Positions 10,073-16,052 of a DNA stretch of 64,000 bases are shown one piece after another. The first letter of the stretch is position 1; every line of letters begins with the position of its first letter. A model generated the notes under the pieces. The model was not told the origin of the DNA and did no database searches. It worked only from the letters and a program-made list of their open reading frames with translations. The stretch lies in NCBI GenBank assembly GCA_019683805.1, contig JADGHQ010000002.1, positions 1 to 64,000 of the forward strand, written 5' to 3'. A program made the position numbers and the translations under genes. Origin of the DNA: Thermoleophilaceae bacterium. Its GTDB lineage: Bacteria > Actinomycetota > Thermoleophilia > Solirubrobacterales > Thermoleophilaceae.

Positions 10073-10468
10073 ATGTCGCTTCGCAACTTCGAGCTCGAGC
10101 AGGAGACGATCAACGGTCAGACGGTGGCCATCAGGCTCGCCGGCGACGTCGATCTCTACGTCGCCGACGACCTGCGCGAGGCGGTGGGCCAGCAGATCGA
10201 CAGCGGCAGGTCGCGACTGATCATCGACCTCACCGAGGCCACGTTCATCGACTCGACGACCCTCGGGATCCTCGTCGGCGCCATGAGGCGGCTGCGCACG
10301 CGCGGCGGCCGCCTCACGGTCGTCTGCCCGAACCCCGTGATCGCGCGCGTGTTCGAGATCACGGGGCTCAACCGCATGTTCGGCGTGTTCGAGACGCGCG
10401 AGCAGGCGCTCGCGCCGCCGGCGCCCGCCCCCGAGGGCTACACGCCGCCCGGGACGCCGCCGCGCTGA
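10073..10468 (+). CDS. STAS-domain anti-sigma factor antagonist
   Basis: 131 residues from ATG 10073. A SpoIIAA/RsbV-type STAS domain covers residues 5 to about 110: a short beta start (VAIRLAGDVDLYVADDLREAV) and the phosphorylation loop FIDSTTLGIL with the conserved Ser. A Pro-rich tail follows. Such proteins bind anti-sigma kinases when dephosphorylated. No cognate kinase is adjacent; a kinase-like protein lies at 38964 and a PP2C phosphatase at 43071. Its 3' end overlaps the convergent small membrane gene by 31 bases. A TAGGAT box lies near 9972, roughly 95 bases upstream. Confidence 0.88.
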   Translation: MSLRNFELEQETINGQTVAIRLAGDVDLYVADDLREAVGQQIDSGRSRLIIDLTEATFIDSTTLGILVGAMRRLRTRGGRLTVVCPNPVIARVFEITGLNRMFGVFETREQALAPPAPAPEGYTPPGTPPR

Positions 10469-10623
10469 CACGGCGGCTCGTGCTCGCCCTCCGCCTGCTC
10501 GCACGCATCCATGCGCGCGTCGCGGCGGCGCATGAACGCGAGCCACGCCGCGAGCACCGCGACCGGGCCGAGGAATATCGGCAGATCGACGAGCACGTGG
10601 CCTGCGTGGGCGAGCGGAAGCAT
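10438..10623 (-). CDS. Small membrane protein coupled to the His-rich membrane protein
   Basis: 61 residues. Its ATG shares one base with the TGA of the upstream gene (TGATG), a translational-coupling arrangement. After a short segment with His (AHAGH) comes one transmembrane helix (about residues 10-30, LVDLPIFLGPVAVLAAWLAF) and an Arg stop-transfer, then a polar tail. It is not assignable to a known family. The tight coupling suggests it is a subunit or partner of the 638-residue membrane protein. Its last 31 bases are antisense to the STAS gene. Confidence 0.6.
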   Translation of the reverse strand: MLPLAHAGHVLVDLPIFLGPVAVLAAWLAFMRRRDARMDACEQAEGEHEPPCQRGGVPGGV

Positions 10624-12539
10624 CACGCGGGCGTGGGCGCCCTCGTGCGAACGTGCCCGGAGGCAGGCAGCGGTCCGGCGCCGGCGAAGCGCGGGCTCTC
10701 GGCCGTCCGCTCGAGCCGGCGCAGGCCGATGCCCATCGCCACGAGCCAGCCCGCGGCGATCGCGGCGAGCAGGAGGTAGGCGGGCAGGGCGAGCCAGCCG
10801 CCGCCGATCGCCTCGCGCTGGAGGACCTTCTTGTCGCGCACGAACGGCCGCGTGAAGCGCGCCGGCGCCGGGATCTCCCTGGCGGGGATCGCCCTGTCCT
10901 CCGGCATGTACACCGGCAGCGCGAGCACCTGGCGGCCGTCCTCCATGCGCAGCATCGTCTTCCAGCGGCCGTGGACCGGGACGGGCACGGTCGACCGGTA
11001 GACGCCCTCGGCGACCTTCCTGAGCCGGTCGACGTACAGGCCGCCGCCCTGCCACGACGTGAGCGTGAGCCACTGAGCGCGCTCGGCGGCGTCGCGCGGG
11101 TGAAGCTCGACGGTGGCCTCGACCTCGCGGCCCGGCGCGGGCCTCACGTCGCGGAGCGCGATCGTGGCCGCCTGGTGGCCGCGCGGCTCGCTCATCGGCA
11201 GCGGGAAGGCGATCACGAACACCGCCGCCGCGGCGGCCGCCGGCAGCAGCCAGCGCGGTGCGCGGGCGGGCTGCCCGGCCGCGAGGTCCGCCGAGGTGAG
11301 GGCGCGGCCGATGAAGCCGCCGAGCACGCCGCCGGCGAGCGCGGCCGCGAAGCCGAGCGGCGCGGCCTGCGGGAGCAGCGACGAGGGCCACGGCAGCGGC
11401 ATCCAGACGTGCGACCAGCCCCACTCGGCGGCGAGGCCGACAGTGCCGATCAGGACGCCCGAGGCCGCGCCGAGCGCGAGCGGGCGCCGACGGCCTAGCC
11501 GCGCCGCCGCGAGCTCCACGCACACCGCCTCCGCGAGGTAGAGCGGGAAGTGGAGCGTGCTCATCCCGAGCACCGGGCCGATCACGAGGCTGAGCCCTCC
11601 GCGCATGCCGACGAAGAAGAGCGCCGCAGCCAGCGCGCCGAAGCGCCCGAGGTAGAGGCGCGCCGTGACGAGGCCCGCGCCCGCGGCGAGCATCAGCAGG
11701 ATCGGGTGGTAGACGAGCTGGAACTGGGGCACGCCGAAGTCGAACTCGCCCTGCAGCGTCGAGAGGCCGATCAGGAACGCCCCGGCCGACGCGGCCGCGC
11801 GCCAGCGCACGAGGAACGGCTCCCCCCGGGAGGGCACGCCGGGGCCGCGCGAGCGACGACCCTCCACGAGCAGGACGAGCACGCCGATCGTCGAGAGCGA
11901 CGCCCCCGCCACCATCAGCACGTGCGTCGGTCCCCAGAGCGTGACGTCCTGCCCGAAGAGCGCGTGCCAGACGTCGTCGAGCGGGAAGCCCGCGAGCGCG
12001 CAGGCGGCGCACAGGAAGATCAGGACGCCGCCGAGGGGCGCGCGCCACTCGCCGCCGATGCGGACCGAGGTGGGCACGCGGCCGCTCGCGCCGAGCACGA
12101 TCGCGGTGAAGCCGGCGAGCGCGAGGCCCATGAGGCCGATCAGGATCGGATAGTGCGCGGCGGTCCCGAACGGACCCGGGTCGCGGCCGGTGTCGATGTG
12201 CTTCGCCACGTCCCAGTAGAAGCCGAAGACCGCGACGAGCGCCGACCCGCCGGCGATGGCCGTCGGCAGCGCCGCCCAGCCCGGCAGGCCGGTGGCGCGC
12301 TCGGCCGCGGCTGCGAGCCGGTCGACGACGCGCACCCGCCCGTCGCGGTATGCGATCGCCGCCCACAGCACGAGCGCCGAGAGCGCGGCGCCCACCGCCG
12401 TGGCCCAGATGACGTCCCCGATCGGCGCGCCGCGCGCGGGCTCGCTGCCGGTCTCGGCCAGGGCCGGCGCGGCGGCCGCCAGGGACGCGATGGCTGCGGC
12501 GCCTCCCGCCGCTGCAAGTCTCGGAACACGTGCCTTCAT
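10623..12539 (-). CDS. His-rich polytopic membrane protein with internal repeats and C-terminal exported domain
   Basis: 638 residues; start chosen at the ATG preceded by AAGGGAGG. A signal-like segment (residues 8-28) is followed by about ten transmembrane helices to about residue 445, a soluble domain (about 450-575) whose wording (TLTSWQGGGLYVDRL, VHGRWKTML, LPVYMPEDRA) recalls FixH/YtkA-like exported beta domains, and a final helix (about 582-605). The membrane part carries related blocks with conserved His and Asp: YWDVAKHIDTGRD...H129, DDVWHALFGQD...H206, EFDFG...H278 and H330. Function is unknown; bound metal or heme is a reasonable guess. It is divergent from a MerR regulator. Confidence 0.8.
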   Translation of the reverse strand: MKARVPRLAAAGGAAAIASLAAAAPALAETGSEPARGAPIGDVIWATAVGAALSALVLWAAIAYRDGRVRVVDRLAAAAERATGLPGWAALPTAIAGGSALVAVFGFYWDVAKHIDTGRDPGPFGTAAHYPILIGLMGLALAGFTAIVLGASGRVPTSVRIGGEWRAPLGGVLIFLCAACALAGFPLDDVWHALFGQDVTLWGPTHVLMVAGASLSTIGVLVLLVEGRRSRGPGVPSRGEPFLVRWRAAASAGAFLIGLSTLQGEFDFGVPQFQLVYHPILLMLAAGAGLVTARLYLGRFGALAAALFFVGMRGGLSLVIGPVLGMSTLHFPLYLAEAVCVELAAARLGRRRPLALGAASGVLIGTVGLAAEWGWSHVWMPLPWPSSLLPQAAPLGFAAALAGGVLGGFIGRALTSADLAAGQPARAPRWLLPAAAAAAVFVIAFPLPMSEPRGHQAATIALRDVRPAPGREVEATVELHPRDAAERAQWLTLTSWQGGGLYVDRLRKVAEGVYRSTVPVPVHGRWKTMLRMEDGRQVLALPVYMPEDRAIPAREIPAPARFTRPFVRDKKVLQREAIGGGWLALPAYLLLAAIAAGWLVAMGIGLRRLERTAESPRFAGAGPLPASGHVRTRAPTPA

Positions 12540-12629
12540 GCAGCCTCCCTTATCGTCGCCGCGCGGGGAGATTTTACATGAATCGATGTCACATGGACAC
12601 ATGGAGCACCGGAGCCCGACCGGCGCGGG

Positions 12630-12635
12630 TACGAT
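12630..12635 (+). promoter_or_regulatory. -10-like TACGAT for leaderless merR
   Basis: TANNNT hexamer seven bases before the GTG at 12643. It favours the GTG over the in-frame ATG codons at 12586 and 12601, since those would lie upstream of the transcript. The inverted repeat ACAT-N6-ATGT at 12577-12590 sits upstream between the divergent genes and could be an operator. Confidence 0.4.
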
Positions 12636-12642
12636 CGTCCGC

Positions 12643-13365
12643 GTGGGAGAGAACGGCCTGACGATCGACGAGCTTGCGCGCGAGGTCGGCATGACGGTCC
12701 GCAACGTGCGCGCGCACCAGTCGCGCGGCCTGCTCCCCCCGCCCGAGGTGCGGGCGCGGACCGGCTACTACGGGCCAGCGCACGTCGCTCGGCTCCGCCT
12801 CATCAAGGAGATGCAGGCGGAGGGTTTCAACCTCAAGGCGATCGAGCGCCTGCTGAGCGCCGCCAACGGCGCCGACGAGCAGCTGCTCGACTTCCGCCGC
12901 ACGCTGCTCAGCTCGTTCGCGGACGAGGAGCCCGAGCTGATGACGACCGAGGAGCTGACCGAGCGCTTCGGCCCGCCCGACAGCCCCGCGCTGCGCAAGG
13001 CCGCCAGGCTCGGGCTCGTGCGCCTGCTCGGCGACGACCGCTGGGAGGTGCCGAGCCCGACGATGCTGCGGGCGGGCGAGGAGCTCGTCCGCCTCGGGAT
13101 CCCGCTCGAGCACGCGCTCGCGGTGGCCGAGCGGGTGCAGCGCAACATCCGCTCGATCGCCGAGGCGTTCGTGCGCCTGTTCGTCTCGGATGTGATCGGC
13201 TCGAACGACCCCGCGACGCTCTCGCCGCAGGAGTGGGAGCGGACGCGGCAGGCGCTCGAGCGGCTGCGCCCGCTGGCGATGGACGTGGTGCGCGCCGCGT
13301 TCCAGCACACGATGACCGAGCAGATCGAGCGCGAGGTGGCGAGACTGCTCGGCGGGAAGCAGTAG
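12643..13365 (+). CDS. MerR-family transcriptional regulator
   Basis: 240 residues from GTG 12643. The N-terminal MerR winged helix is clear: LTIDELAREVGMTVRNVRAHQSRGLLPPPEVRARTGYYGPAHVARLRLI. Instead of the Arg-Tyr pair of metal sensors it has AHQSRGLL, a variant typical of actinobacterial MerR-like proteins. The rest is helical (residues about 80-235) with no Cys cluster, so the inducer cannot be guessed. It lies divergently from the His-rich membrane protein, about 100 bases away, which makes that operon the first candidate target. The next gene downstream is convergent. Confidence 0.88.
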   Translation: MGENGLTIDELAREVGMTVRNVRAHQSRGLLPPPEVRARTGYYGPAHVARLRLIKEMQAEGFNLKAIERLLSAANGADEQLLDFRRTLLSSFADEEPELMTTEELTERFGPPDSPALRKAARLGLVRLLGDDRWEVPSPTMLRAGEELVRLGIPLEHALAVAERVQRNIRSIAEAFVRLFVSDVIGSNDPATLSPQEWERTRQALERLRPLAMDVVRAAFQHTMTEQIEREVARLLGGKQ

Positions 13366-13379
13366 GCGGGGCCGCGCCG

Positions 13380-13670
13380 CTAGGCGGCCTCGGGCTCGGC
13401 GTCGTCCGGCGACTCGGCCGCCTCGTCCCCGGCCTCCGGCTCGGCGCCGGCCTCGGGCTCGGCGGCGGCCGCGGAGTCGGTCTCGGCGTCGGTTTCGGCC
13501 TGGGGCTCGGCGTCGGCCTCGGCGTCGCCGGCCTCGGCGTCTTCCGCCTCGTCCTCGCGGTCAGGCTCCTCCTCGTCCTCGCGCTCGGGCTCCTCGCCTG
13601 CGTCCACCGTCGCCTCCTGCGCCTGCGCCTGATCGGCGCCCGCCTGCGCGGCCTCCGCCTCGCCGACGCC
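13380..13670. repeat. Low-complexity Glu/Ala/Asp codon tract
   Basis: Repeats of GCC/GAG/GAC-type codons (on the minus strand) encode the acidic tail of the DEAH helicase. The tract creates spurious open frames on the plus strand rich in Gly/Leu/Val. Confidence 0.7.
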
Positions 13671-16052
13671 CTTGCGCTTGCGCCGGCCCCCGCCGCGGCG
13701 GCGCCTGCCCTTCGGGAAGTTGCGCAGCAGCTCCCGCGCGAGCGCGGACGGCTTGCGCGCCATCCGCGTCCGGGCCCCGCGCAGAACCTCCTCCGCCTCG
13801 GGCGTGTGGGCCAGCGCCGCCGCGAGCAGCGCGGCCGCGAGGCGGCGGTCCTGCTTGCGGGCCGCCTGCACCAGGCGGCGCGCGTTGCGCGCGTGCGCCG
13901 GGCCTGAGGAGTTGACGAGCAGGCCGAGCAGGCGCTTCGTCTCCGGCCAGCGCTGCACCGCGTACTCCTCGTGGACGTCGCGCGTGTACTCCGCGAGCCG
14001 CCAGAGCCACGCGGTCGCCTGGTCGCGCCGGCCGATCGAGCGCTCGGCGAGCGCCTGCAGCAGCACCTTGACGGCCTCGCGGCGCTCGTCGCGCGCCCAG
14101 CCGCCCACGATGTCGACCGCCTCGTCGAACGCCTCCGCGTCGCGCAGCGCCGACACCTCCTGCAGCGCGCGGATGCGCAGCGCGGAGTTGCGGTTGCGCT
14201 GCAGGCAGGTGATCAGGAAGCGGCGGCGGAGCTCGCCGGTCGAGTCGAAATGCAGCATCGCCTTCGCGCGGCGCCAGTTGTTCGACGCCACGCGGGCGCC
14301 CGCGAGCGCCGCCCACGCGTGCTGCTCGGCCCACGAGAGGTTCTCGACGGCGATCCGCCACAGCTCGCGCTCGAACACCTGGGCGCGGCGCTCGGGATCG
14401 GGGGTGACCGGGACCACGCGGCGCTCCACGCGGATGCGCCGCCCGCGCCCGCGCCGCACGGGGCCGACGACGATCGCGCCGCCGCGGTAGACGTCGCGGT
14501 CGAGCAGCGAGTGGAGCGTCACGACCGGGTCGTCGTGCGTCGTGGCCGGGTGCACGAAGTCGACGACGATGCCCGCCTCCTTGCCTGGGTGGCGGCGGGT
14601 GACGCGCCCGACGCGCTGCTGGTAGATGCGCTTCGACGCCGTCGGCGCGAGGTGCATGCACACCGTCGCGCGCGGCGAGTTCCACCCCTCCGCGAGCAGC
14701 TGCGCGTTCACGAGCACGTCGATCTCGCCGCGCTCGTAGGCCGCGAGGATGCGGGTCAGCTCGCGCTTGGGCGTCTCGCCGGAGACGGCCTTGGCCTTCA
14801 TGCCCGCGTCCTGGAACGCCTTGGCGACGTTGTACGCGTGCTGCACGCCCGCGGCGTAGACCACGCCCGGCAGGTCCTTGAAGCGCACGCGGTAGAGGTC
14901 GGCCACGGCCGCGTTGAACGGGCCCTGGTCGAGCAGCGCGGCCAGCTCTTCCTGGTCGAAGTCCTGGTCGACCTCGCCCTTGCGCAGCGGCACCTTCGCG
15001 ATCGTGCGCACGCCCACGCCGGGCGGGATGCGCACGCAGCGCAGCGGCGCGATCACGCCGCGGCGCGCCGCCTGCGCGAGGTCGAAGCGCGAGGTCTGCG
15101 TCGGGAAGAGGTCGGTGACGTGGCGCGCGATCAGGGCGCCGGTGGCGGTCATGCCGATGAAGGTCGGCCCCTGCCAGCGGCGGATCGTCTCGCTCGTCTT
15201 CTCGCCGAGCGCGGTGTGCGCCTCGTCGCAGATCACGATCGTGTACGCGTCCGAGATCTGGCCGGCGTTGCGCACGAACCACTGGTAGGTCTCGACGGTC
15301 ACGACGCCCGCGCCGACGTCGGGCACACGGTCCCCCTTCAGGAGCGCCGGCGTGACGCGGCTCTTGTAGCCGCGGTCGAAGAGCTCGCCGTGGAACTGCT
15401 CGACGAGGTTGCGGCGGTGCGTGAGGATCAGGACGCCGCCGGTGCGCGAGGCCTCGACGAACCCGAGCGCCGCCACCGTCTTGCCGGCGCCCGTCGCGTG
15501 CTCGAACCAGAAGCGGCGCGAGGCCCCGGGGTCCTCGGGCTGCTCCTCGAGCTGCTCCTCCACGCCCTCGCCGGCCCCGTCCTGCTCCCAGTCGAGCGGC
15601 TCCTCGTCGCCCGAGAGCTCCTCGTCGTCCTCGATCTGCTCCTCGCCGGGGGAGAGCTGCTCGTACTCGTGGAGGGTGCCGCGCCCGTTGCCGTCGCGCT
15701 GCGACTCCTGCAGCTCCGACAGCAACGCGATCAGCGTGCCCGACAGGGCGTCGACCTGGTGCGCGGAGAGCACCGTGCCGTCGGCGAGATGCGGCTCGTC
15801 CTCGTTGAGGAGGCGCTCCAGCCCGAGCATGAGCGAGAAGTCCTGCCGCCACTCGACGGAGGGGTAGTCGCGCCCCGCCTCGATCTCCGCGAGCGCCGAG
15901 TCGAGGGCGCGCCGGCGCGGCGTGCCCGGGGCGAGCACGGCAGCCGGATCCTCGCCCTCGTGCAGGAACGGCTCGCGCGCGAACTTCTCCGCGCGCTCCA
16001 GGTCCGCGACGGGAACCGGCGGCGATGCGACGGCGGAGCTTGTTTCAGCCAA
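13380..16052 (-). CDS. DEAD/DEAH-box helicase (SF2, type III Res-like) with acidic C-terminal tail
   Basis: About 890 residues. The start is uncertain: TTG 16052 has AGAGG six bases upstream; GTG codons at 16097 and 16094 are alternatives. The N-terminal region contains an acidic stretch (EEQIEDDEELSGDEEPLDWE). The SF2 core follows: ATGAGKT (Walker A, about residue 190), LTHRRN, VICDEAHTALGEKT (DEAH), GMTATG, then the second RecA domain with LAEGWNSPRA and QRVGRVTRR. A long helical region of about 260 residues follows, then roughly 95 residues of Glu/Asp/Ala. The core resembles the Res subunit of restriction systems and SSL2-like helicases, but no methylase or nuclease is nearby. Probably a DNA helicase in repair or chromosome maintenance. 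Confidence 0.85.
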   Translation of the reverse strand: MAETSSAVASPPVPVADLERAEKFAREPFLHEGEDPAAVLAPGTPRRRALDSALAEIEAGRDYPSVEWRQDFSLMLGLERLLNEDEPHLADGTVLSAHQVDALSGTLIALLSELQESQRDGNGRGTLHEYEQLSPGEEQIEDDEELSGDEEPLDWEQDGAGEGVEEQLEEQPEDPGASRRFWFEHATGAGKTVAALGFVEASRTGGVLILTHRRNLVEQFHGELFDRGYKSRVTPALLKGDRVPDVGAGVVTVETYQWFVRNAGQISDAYTIVICDEAHTALGEKTSETIRRWQGPTFIGMTATGALIARHVTDLFPTQTSRFDLAQAARRGVIAPLRCVRIPPGVGVRTIAKVPLRKGEVDQDFDQEELAALLDQGPFNAAVADLYRVRFKDLPGVVYAAGVQHAYNVAKAFQDAGMKAKAVSGETPKRELTRILAAYERGEIDVLVNAQLLAEGWNSPRATVCMHLAPTASKRIYQQRVGRVTRRHPGKEAGIVVDFVHPATTHDDPVVTLHSLLDRDVYRGGAIVVGPVRRGRGRRIRVERRVVPVTPDPERRAQVFERELWRIAVENLSWAEQHAWAALAGARVASNNWRRAKAMLHFDSTGELRRRFLITCLQRNRNSALRIRALQEVSALRDAEAFDEAVDIVGGWARDERREAVKVLLQALAERSIGRRDQATAWLWRLAEYTRDVHEEYAVQRWPETKRLLGLLVNSSGPAHARNARRLVQAARKQDRRLAAALLAAALAHTPEAEEVLRGARTRMARKPSALARELLRNFPKGRRRRGGGRRKRKGVGEAEAAQAGADQAQAQEATVDAGEEPEREDEEEPDREDEAEDAEAGDAEADAEPQAETDAETDSAAAAEPEAGAEPEAGDEAAESPDDAEPEAA

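What the first reader, a model, noticed from the sequence alone, without database searches (positions are those of the whole stretch)
10438..13365. Uncharacterised His-rich repeat membrane protein with small partner and divergent MerR
The 638-residue protein has an internal repeat pattern in its membrane part: YWDVAKH(114)..GRD(120)..H129, DVWH(192)..GQD(198)..H206, EFDFG..H278, and H330 before FPLYL. The first two copies share W/D, His, Gly-polar-Asp and a second His entering a helix. It ends in an exported domain resembling FixH/YtkA types, is translationally coupled (TGATG) to a 61-residue membrane protein with AHAGH, and faces a MerR gene. Repeated buried His suggest metal or heme binding. 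This is the best candidate in the window for an undescribed system; function is inference.
Basis: partly seen in the sequence, partly recalled or inferred. Interest (0 to 1): 0.65.

Follow-up and report, generated by a model that had tools for sequence, protein, structure and literature searches.

The report
PmoC-like copper-site membrane protein family
A membrane protein that no database names, widespread in soil actinobacteria, carries two metal-binding motifs matching those of the copper subunit of methane and ammonia monooxygenases, so it may be a lone, simpler relative of those enzymes or a membrane copper handler that shares their site.

Summary
The genes are real: a 638-aa membrane protein (10623-12539, minus), a 61-aa partner overlapping it by TGATG, and a divergent MerR. 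The His "repeat" is half right. H114/H129 and H192/H206 are invariant in every homologue that covers them (112/112 and 114/114); H278 and H330 are not. The two units are a significant internal repeat.

The protein has no Pfam, NCBIfam or PDB sequence match. Its motifs, D-x3-H-x4-R[DE]-x6..8-H and D-x3-H-x5-D-x7-H, reproduce the order and spacing of the CuC (D156/H160/H173) and CuD (N227/H231/H245) copper sites of PmoC, the C subunit of particulate methane monooxygenase. Profile-profile comparison with 65 PmoC/AmoC sequences scores 35.5 (P 2e-4; 0 of 400 column shuffles; 44 decoy families at most 20.4), but at site 1 only. Foldseek ranks PmoC (7s4h_C) first of 350,542 PDB chains for the AF2 core, below formal significance (E 0.11).

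Neighbours differ by clade: MerR, Baeyer-Villiger monooxygenase, SDR and hydrolase genes around chromosomal copies; copper-resistance genes around most plasmid copies. I read it as a remote PmoC relative with a copper site, most likely an oxygenase subunit; copper handling is the main rival. It is not a CuMMO member: no PF04896 match, no XmoA/XmoB genes. Binding and catalysis are inferred.

The parts
10623..12539 (-). 638-aa polytopic membrane protein: signal/first helix, about 11 transmembrane helices, C-terminal exported beta domain, last transmembrane helix
   Evidence: ORF and translation; AF2 model pLDDT 89.2, pTM 0.89; relatives in 36 of 296 Actinomycetota genomes
11820..12443 (-). PmoC-like core, residues 33-240 (five transmembrane helices)
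   Evidence: AF2 core model pLDDT 88.4; Foldseek rank 1 of 350,542 PDB chains = PmoC 7s4h_C, prob 0.97, E 0.11, TMq 0.45
12153..12212 (-). Metal motif 1, residues 110-129: D110-x3-H114-x4-R119-D120-x8-H129, matching the PmoC CuC motif
   Evidence: D110, H114, R119, H129 invariant in 112 of 112 members, D/E at 120; hhalign to PmoC P 2e-4, 0/400 shuffles
11922..11978 (-). Metal motif 2, residues 188-206: D188-x3-H192-x5-D198-x7-H206, same spacing as the PmoC CuD motif (N-x3-H-x5-[DE]-x7-H)
   Evidence: D188, H192, D198, W202, H206 invariant in 114 of 114 members; x7 spacing in 118/118 members and 65/65 PmoC; not aligned to PmoC site 2 by profile comparison alone
11346..11420 (-). Residues 374-398 (GWSHVWMPLPWPSSLLPQAAPLGFA), weakly PmoA-like stretch
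   Evidence: hhalign to PmoA P 0.02-0.06, 1 of 200 shuffles as high; suggestive only
10800..11204 (-). Exported beta-sandwich domain, residues 446-580, invariant K527, D548, E576; absent from short-form relatives
   Evidence: AF2 strands 457-565; conservation; short forms L119/L120 lack it; no significant Pfam match
10438..10623 (-). 61-aa single-helix partner with HAGH, predicted N-out, translationally coupled (TGATG)
   Evidence: related small proteins downstream of other family members
12601..13365 (+). Divergent MerR-family regulator with no cysteine; start uncertain (ATG 12586 or 12601, GTG 12643)
   Evidence: Pfam MerR_1 5.3e-21; zero Cys; MerR adjacent in 14 of 30 loci

Best explanation
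The 638-aa protein belongs to an undescribed family whose N-terminal membrane core is a remote homologue of PmoC/AmoC, the copper subunit of copper membrane monooxygenases. Two D-H-H triads, formed where one helix ends and the next begins on the outer face of the membrane, bind copper as the CuC and CuD sites of PmoC do. I think the protein is the catalytic subunit of a small copper-dependent membrane oxygenase without XmoA and XmoB. The further helices, the exported beta domain and the 61-aa coupled helix would complete the active-site environment or deliver copper and electrons. In the Thermoleophilia it would hydroxylate a hydrophobic carbon substrate; downstream SDR, Baeyer-Villiger monooxygenase and alpha/beta-hydrolase genes would carry the product through ketone and ester. 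The Cys-free MerR would respond to an organic ligand. Shown: the family, invariant ligands, motif correspondence, profile and fold similarity, gene neighbourhoods. Inferred: copper, oxygenase activity, substrate, and the roles of the partner and regulator.
For: Motif identity: 118 of 121 members carry both motifs; site-2 spacing is identical in 118/118 members and 65/65 PmoC; site-1 spacing equals PmoC in the most divergent members (x6 in 8, x7 in 29, x8 in 81); distance between the motifs 67-82 versus 71-74 in PmoC. PmoC ligands D156/H160/H173 and N227/H231/H245 come from PMC12576850. Motif by chance: 0 of 200,000 local column shuffles. Profile-profile comparison: score 35.5, P 2e-4, shuffle maximum 27.1 of 400, 44 decoy families at most 20.4. 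Fold: PmoC rank 1 of 350,542 PDB chains, AmoC 9cl6_C rank 25, PmoC 7yzy_C rank 39; a pMMO chain also at rank 16 for the full-length model. Copper link: cupredoxin-like, CopC, DUF1775, multicopper oxidase, HMA and P-type ATPase genes beside several members. Oxidation link: Pfam tally of genes -2 to +3 around 30 loci gives MerR 15, SDR 7, FMO-like 7; most of the FMO genes carry the Baeyer-Villiger fingerprint FxGxxxHxxxW[DP]; ALDH immediately upstream in two loci.
Against: No PF04896 match in the window's genome or 40 relatives, nor in any member scanned. Foldseek E-values are not significant (0.11) and TM-scores moderate (0.45, rmsd 8.4 A). The profile signal comes from site 1; site 2 alone does not align to PmoC site 2 (P 0.73), and Asp replaces the CuD Asn. 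The first PmoC comparisons were marginal (P 0.06, 10 of 260 shuffles) and became strong only after divergent members without the site-1 insertion were added. No XmoA or XmoB gene is nearby. The oxidation-gene context appears in a minority of loci and not at the window locus. Most plasmid members sit in metal-resistance islands, which fits copper handling as well or better.
Confidence: 0.48

Rival explanations
1. A membrane copper-handling protein with a PmoC-like site: it sequesters, moves or oxidises Cu(I) at the outer face of the membrane, or delivers copper to an exported cuproenzyme. It is homologous to PmoC but not an oxygenase.
For: Plasmid members lie among CopC, DUF305, TlpA and CtaG-type genes (M. 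vanbaalenii); cupredoxin, HMA and P-type ATPase (S. mirabilis); multicopper oxidase and cupredoxin (Streptomyces F2); metal-sensitive regulator, two P-type ATPases, YHS and a four-helix copper-binding protein (Leifsonia); YHS protein (M. aubagnense). Cupredoxin-like lipoproteins next to chromosomal members.
Against: Thermoleophilia members neighbour oxidation genes instead; the window MerR has no cysteine, so it is not a CueR-type copper sensor; the family has none of the Met/Cys clusters usual in copper transporters (my knowledge); many invariant or nearly invariant buried acids (E226, E265, E342, E372) suggest chemistry rather than storage.
Confidence: 0.32
2. The match to PmoC is convergent: an unrelated multi-helix protein with a duplicated D-H-H unit binding another metal (iron, zinc) or acting in proton or quinone chemistry.
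For: No significant Foldseek E-value; no sequence-level PDB or Pfam match; the internal repeat could be a local duplication; site 2 does not align to PmoC on its own.
Against: Full D/H/R/D/H pattern with P-x-H ending at site 1 and 0 of 400 shuffles as high; PmoC ranks first by fold; copper genes nearby in several clades.
Confidence: 0.17
3. A single-chain CuMMO equivalent in which C-like, A-like and B-like parts are fused in xmoCAB order.
For: Order: PmoC-like core, then a stretch weakly like PmoA (P about 0.02, 1 of 200 shuffles), then an exported beta domain and last helix.
Against: The PmoA match is 24 residues long and not significant alone; the beta domain shows no match to PmoB (P 0.25-0.4) and has no conserved His copper ligands; short relatives without it exist.
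Confidence: 0.03

Closest known systems
PmoC / AmoC / HmoC (CuMMO subunit C, PF04896)
   Same: Same order, residue types and near-identical spacing of two D(N)-H-H motifs at helix-loop-helix junctions; best PDB fold match; significant profile alignment at site 1
   Different: About 17% identity in the structural alignment; no PF04896 match; motif 2 starts with Asp, not Asn; longer, with more helices and its own exported domain; no XmoA or XmoB genes nearby
Actinobacterial hydrocarbon CuMMO operons (Mycolicibacterium chubuense NBB4 and others)
   Same: Actinobacterial, PmoC-type motifs, a small protein gene downstream; M. chubuense NBB4 carries a family member on the same plasmid
   Different: Those are three-gene CAB operons; this is one gene plus a 61-aa partner
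FixH / YtkA-like exported domains (PF05751, PF13115)
   Same: Weak HMM hits to the C-terminal beta domain in a few members
   Different: Scores far below cut-off; no solid homology shown
MerR-family regulators (CueR, MerR, FtsR-like)
   Same: N-terminal MerR helix-turn-helix
   Different: No cysteine; longer C-terminal domain; not CueR, ZntR or MerR proper

Membership tests
CuMMO subunit C (PmoC/AmoC) | Matches the PF04896 AmoC profile | tested here: not met
   No PF04896 hit in P0001 or any of 66 members at E up to 1; none in the own genome or 40 relatives
CuMMO subunit C (PmoC/AmoC) | CuC triad D-x3-H-x12-H | tested here: met
   D-x3-H...H with R[DE] at the same offset, invariant; H-to-H x12 in the divergent members, x13-14 in the rest
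CuMMO subunit C (PmoC/AmoC) | CuD triad N-x3-H-x13-H | tested here: inconclusive
   Same spacing in 118/118 members but Asp instead of Asn; no independent profile alignment
CuMMO subunit C (PmoC/AmoC) | PmoC fold | tested here: inconclusive
   Top Foldseek hit of 350,542 chains, prob 0.97, but E 0.11 and TMq 0.45
CuMMO complex (XmoCAB) | Encoded with XmoA and XmoB | tested here: not met
   No such genes seen in the window neighbourhood or among the top families of the neighbour tally; the own genome lacks PF04896
CuMMO complex (XmoCAB) | Copper content and hydrocarbon or ammonia oxidation | not testable with these tools
   Needs biochemistry
Known transporter family | Match to a Pfam or NCBIfam transporter model | tested here: not met
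   Zero families for P0001 in either library at E up to 5
CueR-type copper-sensing MerR | Metal-binding cysteines in the C-terminal loop | tested here: not met
   The regulator has no cysteine; CueR score 37 against a cut-off of 147
FixH/YtkA domain | Pfam score above cut-off | tested here: not met
   Best E 0.01-0.02 in a few members, below cut-off

The most novel reading that the evidence does not exclude
A new class of copper membrane oxygenase that works with a single large PmoC-like chain plus a 61-aa helix, without PmoA and PmoB, present in roughly one in eight sampled actinobacterial genomes. It would show that the C subunit alone carries the active site.
Probability: 0.35. Interest if true: 0.92.

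Novelty: new variant of a known kind. Interest (0 to 1): 0.72.

Why it matters
Where methane and ammonia monooxygenases carry out their chemistry has been disputed for decades, with the CuC/CuD region of PmoC now the leading candidate (PMC12576850). A family that keeps that ligand set while lacking the other two subunits is a natural experiment: if it oxidises a substrate, PmoC-type sites are sufficient; if it only handles copper, the motif alone is not diagnostic for an oxygenase. It would also add a hidden oxidation or copper capacity to widespread soil actinobacteria, in proteins now annotated as hypothetical.

Tried and rejected
Sequence searches of Pfam, NCBIfam and PDB with P0001 and the family profile: nothing. 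Full-length Foldseek: no significant hit. Viral structure library: nothing, and no PmoC seen there. First hhalign comparisons with 3 and 10 PmoC sequences: marginal, so I enlarged both sides; the same site-1 residues were aligned each time, except in one core-only run that caught only its second half. Site 2 alone against PmoC site 2: no alignment. PmoA match of residues 374-398: kept as suggestive only. PmoB match of the beta domain: rejected. Heme ligation, transporter, CueR-type regulation and H278/H330 as ligands: rejected or unsupported. Profile search of whole genomes with alignment A1 failed twice for technical reasons; single-protein searches replaced it. A literature search of open papers found no description of the family, but subscription papers and preprints were not searchable.
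Full report
Observation. The ORFs are as described: a 638-aa protein at 10623-12539 (minus), a 61-aa protein at 10438-10623 starting inside its stop codon (TGATG), and a divergent MerR gene ending at 13365. The genome is a high-GC actinobacterial assembly (2.56 Mb, 134 contigs, 95% complete); many relatives are labelled Thermoleophilaceae or Solirubrobacteraceae. The protein has no Pfam, NCBIfam or PDB sequence match.

Family. Relatives occur in 25 of 199 genomes of the class and 36 of 296 genomes drawn across the phylum, and in 53 loci of genome contigs, including Acidimicrobiia and one Chloroflexota contig. In 66 aligned homologues D110, H114, G118, R119, D120, H129, D188, H192, G196, D198, W202, H206, E226, E265, R294, E342, K527, D548 and E576 are invariant, while H278 is 35% and H330 61% conserved. 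With more divergent members the site residues hold in 112 of 112 (site 1, with E for D120 in three) and 114 of 114 (site 2) sequences. The two units are a true internal repeat (P 3.7e-5).

Link to PmoC. The motifs are D-x3-H-x4-R[DE]-x(6-8)-H and D-x3-H-x5-D-x7-H. PmoC has D156/H160/H173 (CuC) and N227/H231/H245 (CuD); the two sites lie about 6 A apart and were never both occupied in the cryo-EM structures (PMC12576850). PmoC sequences were collected from actinobacterial genomes, plasmids and viral contigs. All 65 have D-x3-H-x4-R[DE]-x6-H and [ND]-x3-H-x5-[DE]-x7-H with 71-74 residues between the starts; 118 of 121 family members have both motifs, 67-82 residues apart, and the most divergent members have the exact PmoC spacing at site 1. 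Shuffling columns locally never produced motif 1 in 200,000 trials.

Statistics of homology. Early hhalign runs were marginal (P 0.06 with 10 PmoC sequences, 10 of 260 shuffles as high) but put the site-1 ligands in register. With 115 family and 65 PmoC sequences the N-terminal half gave P 0.0054, with 1 of 200 shuffles as high. With plasmid-borne members added and match columns based on a member without the site-1 insertion, the score was 35.5, P 2e-4, against a shuffle distribution of 14.5 +/- 2.9 (maximum 27.1 of 400); 44 unrelated families reached at most 20.4. This was one of several alignment choices, so the P value is optimistic. Site 2 alone does not align to PmoC site 2; its support is the conserved spacing.

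Structure. AF2 models are confident (pLDDT 89.2 full length, 88.4 core). In the model D110/H114 end one helix and H129 starts the next, and likewise D188/H192 and H206; loop charges put both loops on the outer face. For the core the best of 350,542 PDB chains is PmoC 7s4h_C (prob 0.97, TMq 0.45, 17% identity), with AmoC 9cl6_C and PmoC 7yzy_C in the top 50, but no E-value passes 0.001. Coordinates could not be inspected, so ligand geometry is untested.

Neighbourhood. In 30 loci with at least 2.5 kb on both sides, MerR is adjacent in 14, and Baeyer-Villiger-type FMO (fingerprint FxGxxxHxxxW[DP] in all but one) lies within four genes in 8, SDR in 8, alpha/beta hydrolase in 6. A Pfam tally over 139 neighbours agrees: MerR 15, SDR 7, FMO-like 7, alpha/beta hydrolase 5-6. 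Aldehyde dehydrogenase is directly upstream in L004 and L006. These genes would fit subterminal oxidation of an alkane-like substrate through alcohol, ketone and ester (my knowledge of that pathway). Other chromosomal members are followed by a small helix protein, a cupredoxin-like lipoprotein and a 350-460 aa membrane protein. Plasmid members sit beside copper or heavy-metal genes in M. vanbaalenii JOB5, S. mirabilis, Streptomyces F2, L. shinshuensis and, less clearly, M. aubagnense; Rubrobacter marinus and M. chubuense lack obvious ones. The window locus itself has neither: its neighbours are the partner, the MerR, and genes that look like housekeeping (STAS, biotin ligase, helicase; by eye).

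Partner and regulator. The 61-aa protein has one predicted helix with an arginine-rich C-terminal side, so N-out, and its HAGH would lie on the outer face. Eight related small proteins share P-x-F-x(1-2)-P, but the His pattern varies. The MerR has no cysteine, which argues against a CueR-like copper sensor.

Interpretation. Remote homology to PmoC with a conserved metal site is likely (about 0.8). Copper is the natural metal but is inferred from homology and neighbours. Oxygenase (0.48) is favoured over copper handling (0.32) because of the clade-specific oxidation genes, the conserved buried acids and the Cys-free regulator; plasmid islands favour the rival, and the two roles may differ between subfamilies. 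It should not be filed as a CuMMO: it has no PF04896 match and no XmoA/XmoB genes, and the CuD Asn is Asp.

Novelty. No description was found in the open literature searched, with the limit that subscription papers and preprints were not searched. I call it a new variant of a known kind: a PmoC-type site in a new, apparently stand-alone architecture.

Noticed in passing
L240, L241, L242, L273, L274, L275: Plasmid-borne family members, most of them 475-496 aa, are annotated only as hypothetical proteins and mostly lie in copper or heavy-metal resistance islands of Mycolicibacterium, Streptomyces and Leifsonia.
   Followed up: partly
L275 and L087 (NC_018022.1, M. chubuense NBB4 plasmid pMYCCH.01): The same plasmid carries a canonical CuMMO CAB operon (about 574400) and a family member (about 406739).
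   Followed up: no
L004:10846-12228, L006:14089-15498, L124:11131-12387, L126:12037-13362: A 420-470 aa membrane protein with an N-terminal HG..G..DLP motif and no Pfam match sits close to a small helix protein, and in most cases a cupredoxin-like lipoprotein, downstream of family members; it may be another undescribed copper-linked protein.
   Followed up: partly
L119:1-996, L120:5068-5922, L121 (the L120/L121 genome matches Rubrobacter marinus): Short family members of about 330 aa lack the exported domain and have the exact PmoC spacing at site 1; two copies in one genome appear frame-disrupted.
   Followed up: partly
L160-L239: At least 127 IMG/VR viral contigs encode a PmoC relative; PmoC genes on large freshwater phages have been described (PMC7674155).
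   Followed up: no
window 13380-15938: A large DEAD/DEAH-type helicase with a long acidic repetitive C-terminal tail lies beyond the MerR gene (by eye, not tested).
   Followed up: no
G000:C51:4795-6045: The window's genome has a strong FMO-like (PF00743) gene elsewhere (E 1.3e-93), so a flavin monooxygenase exists although none is next to the family gene.
   Followed up: no
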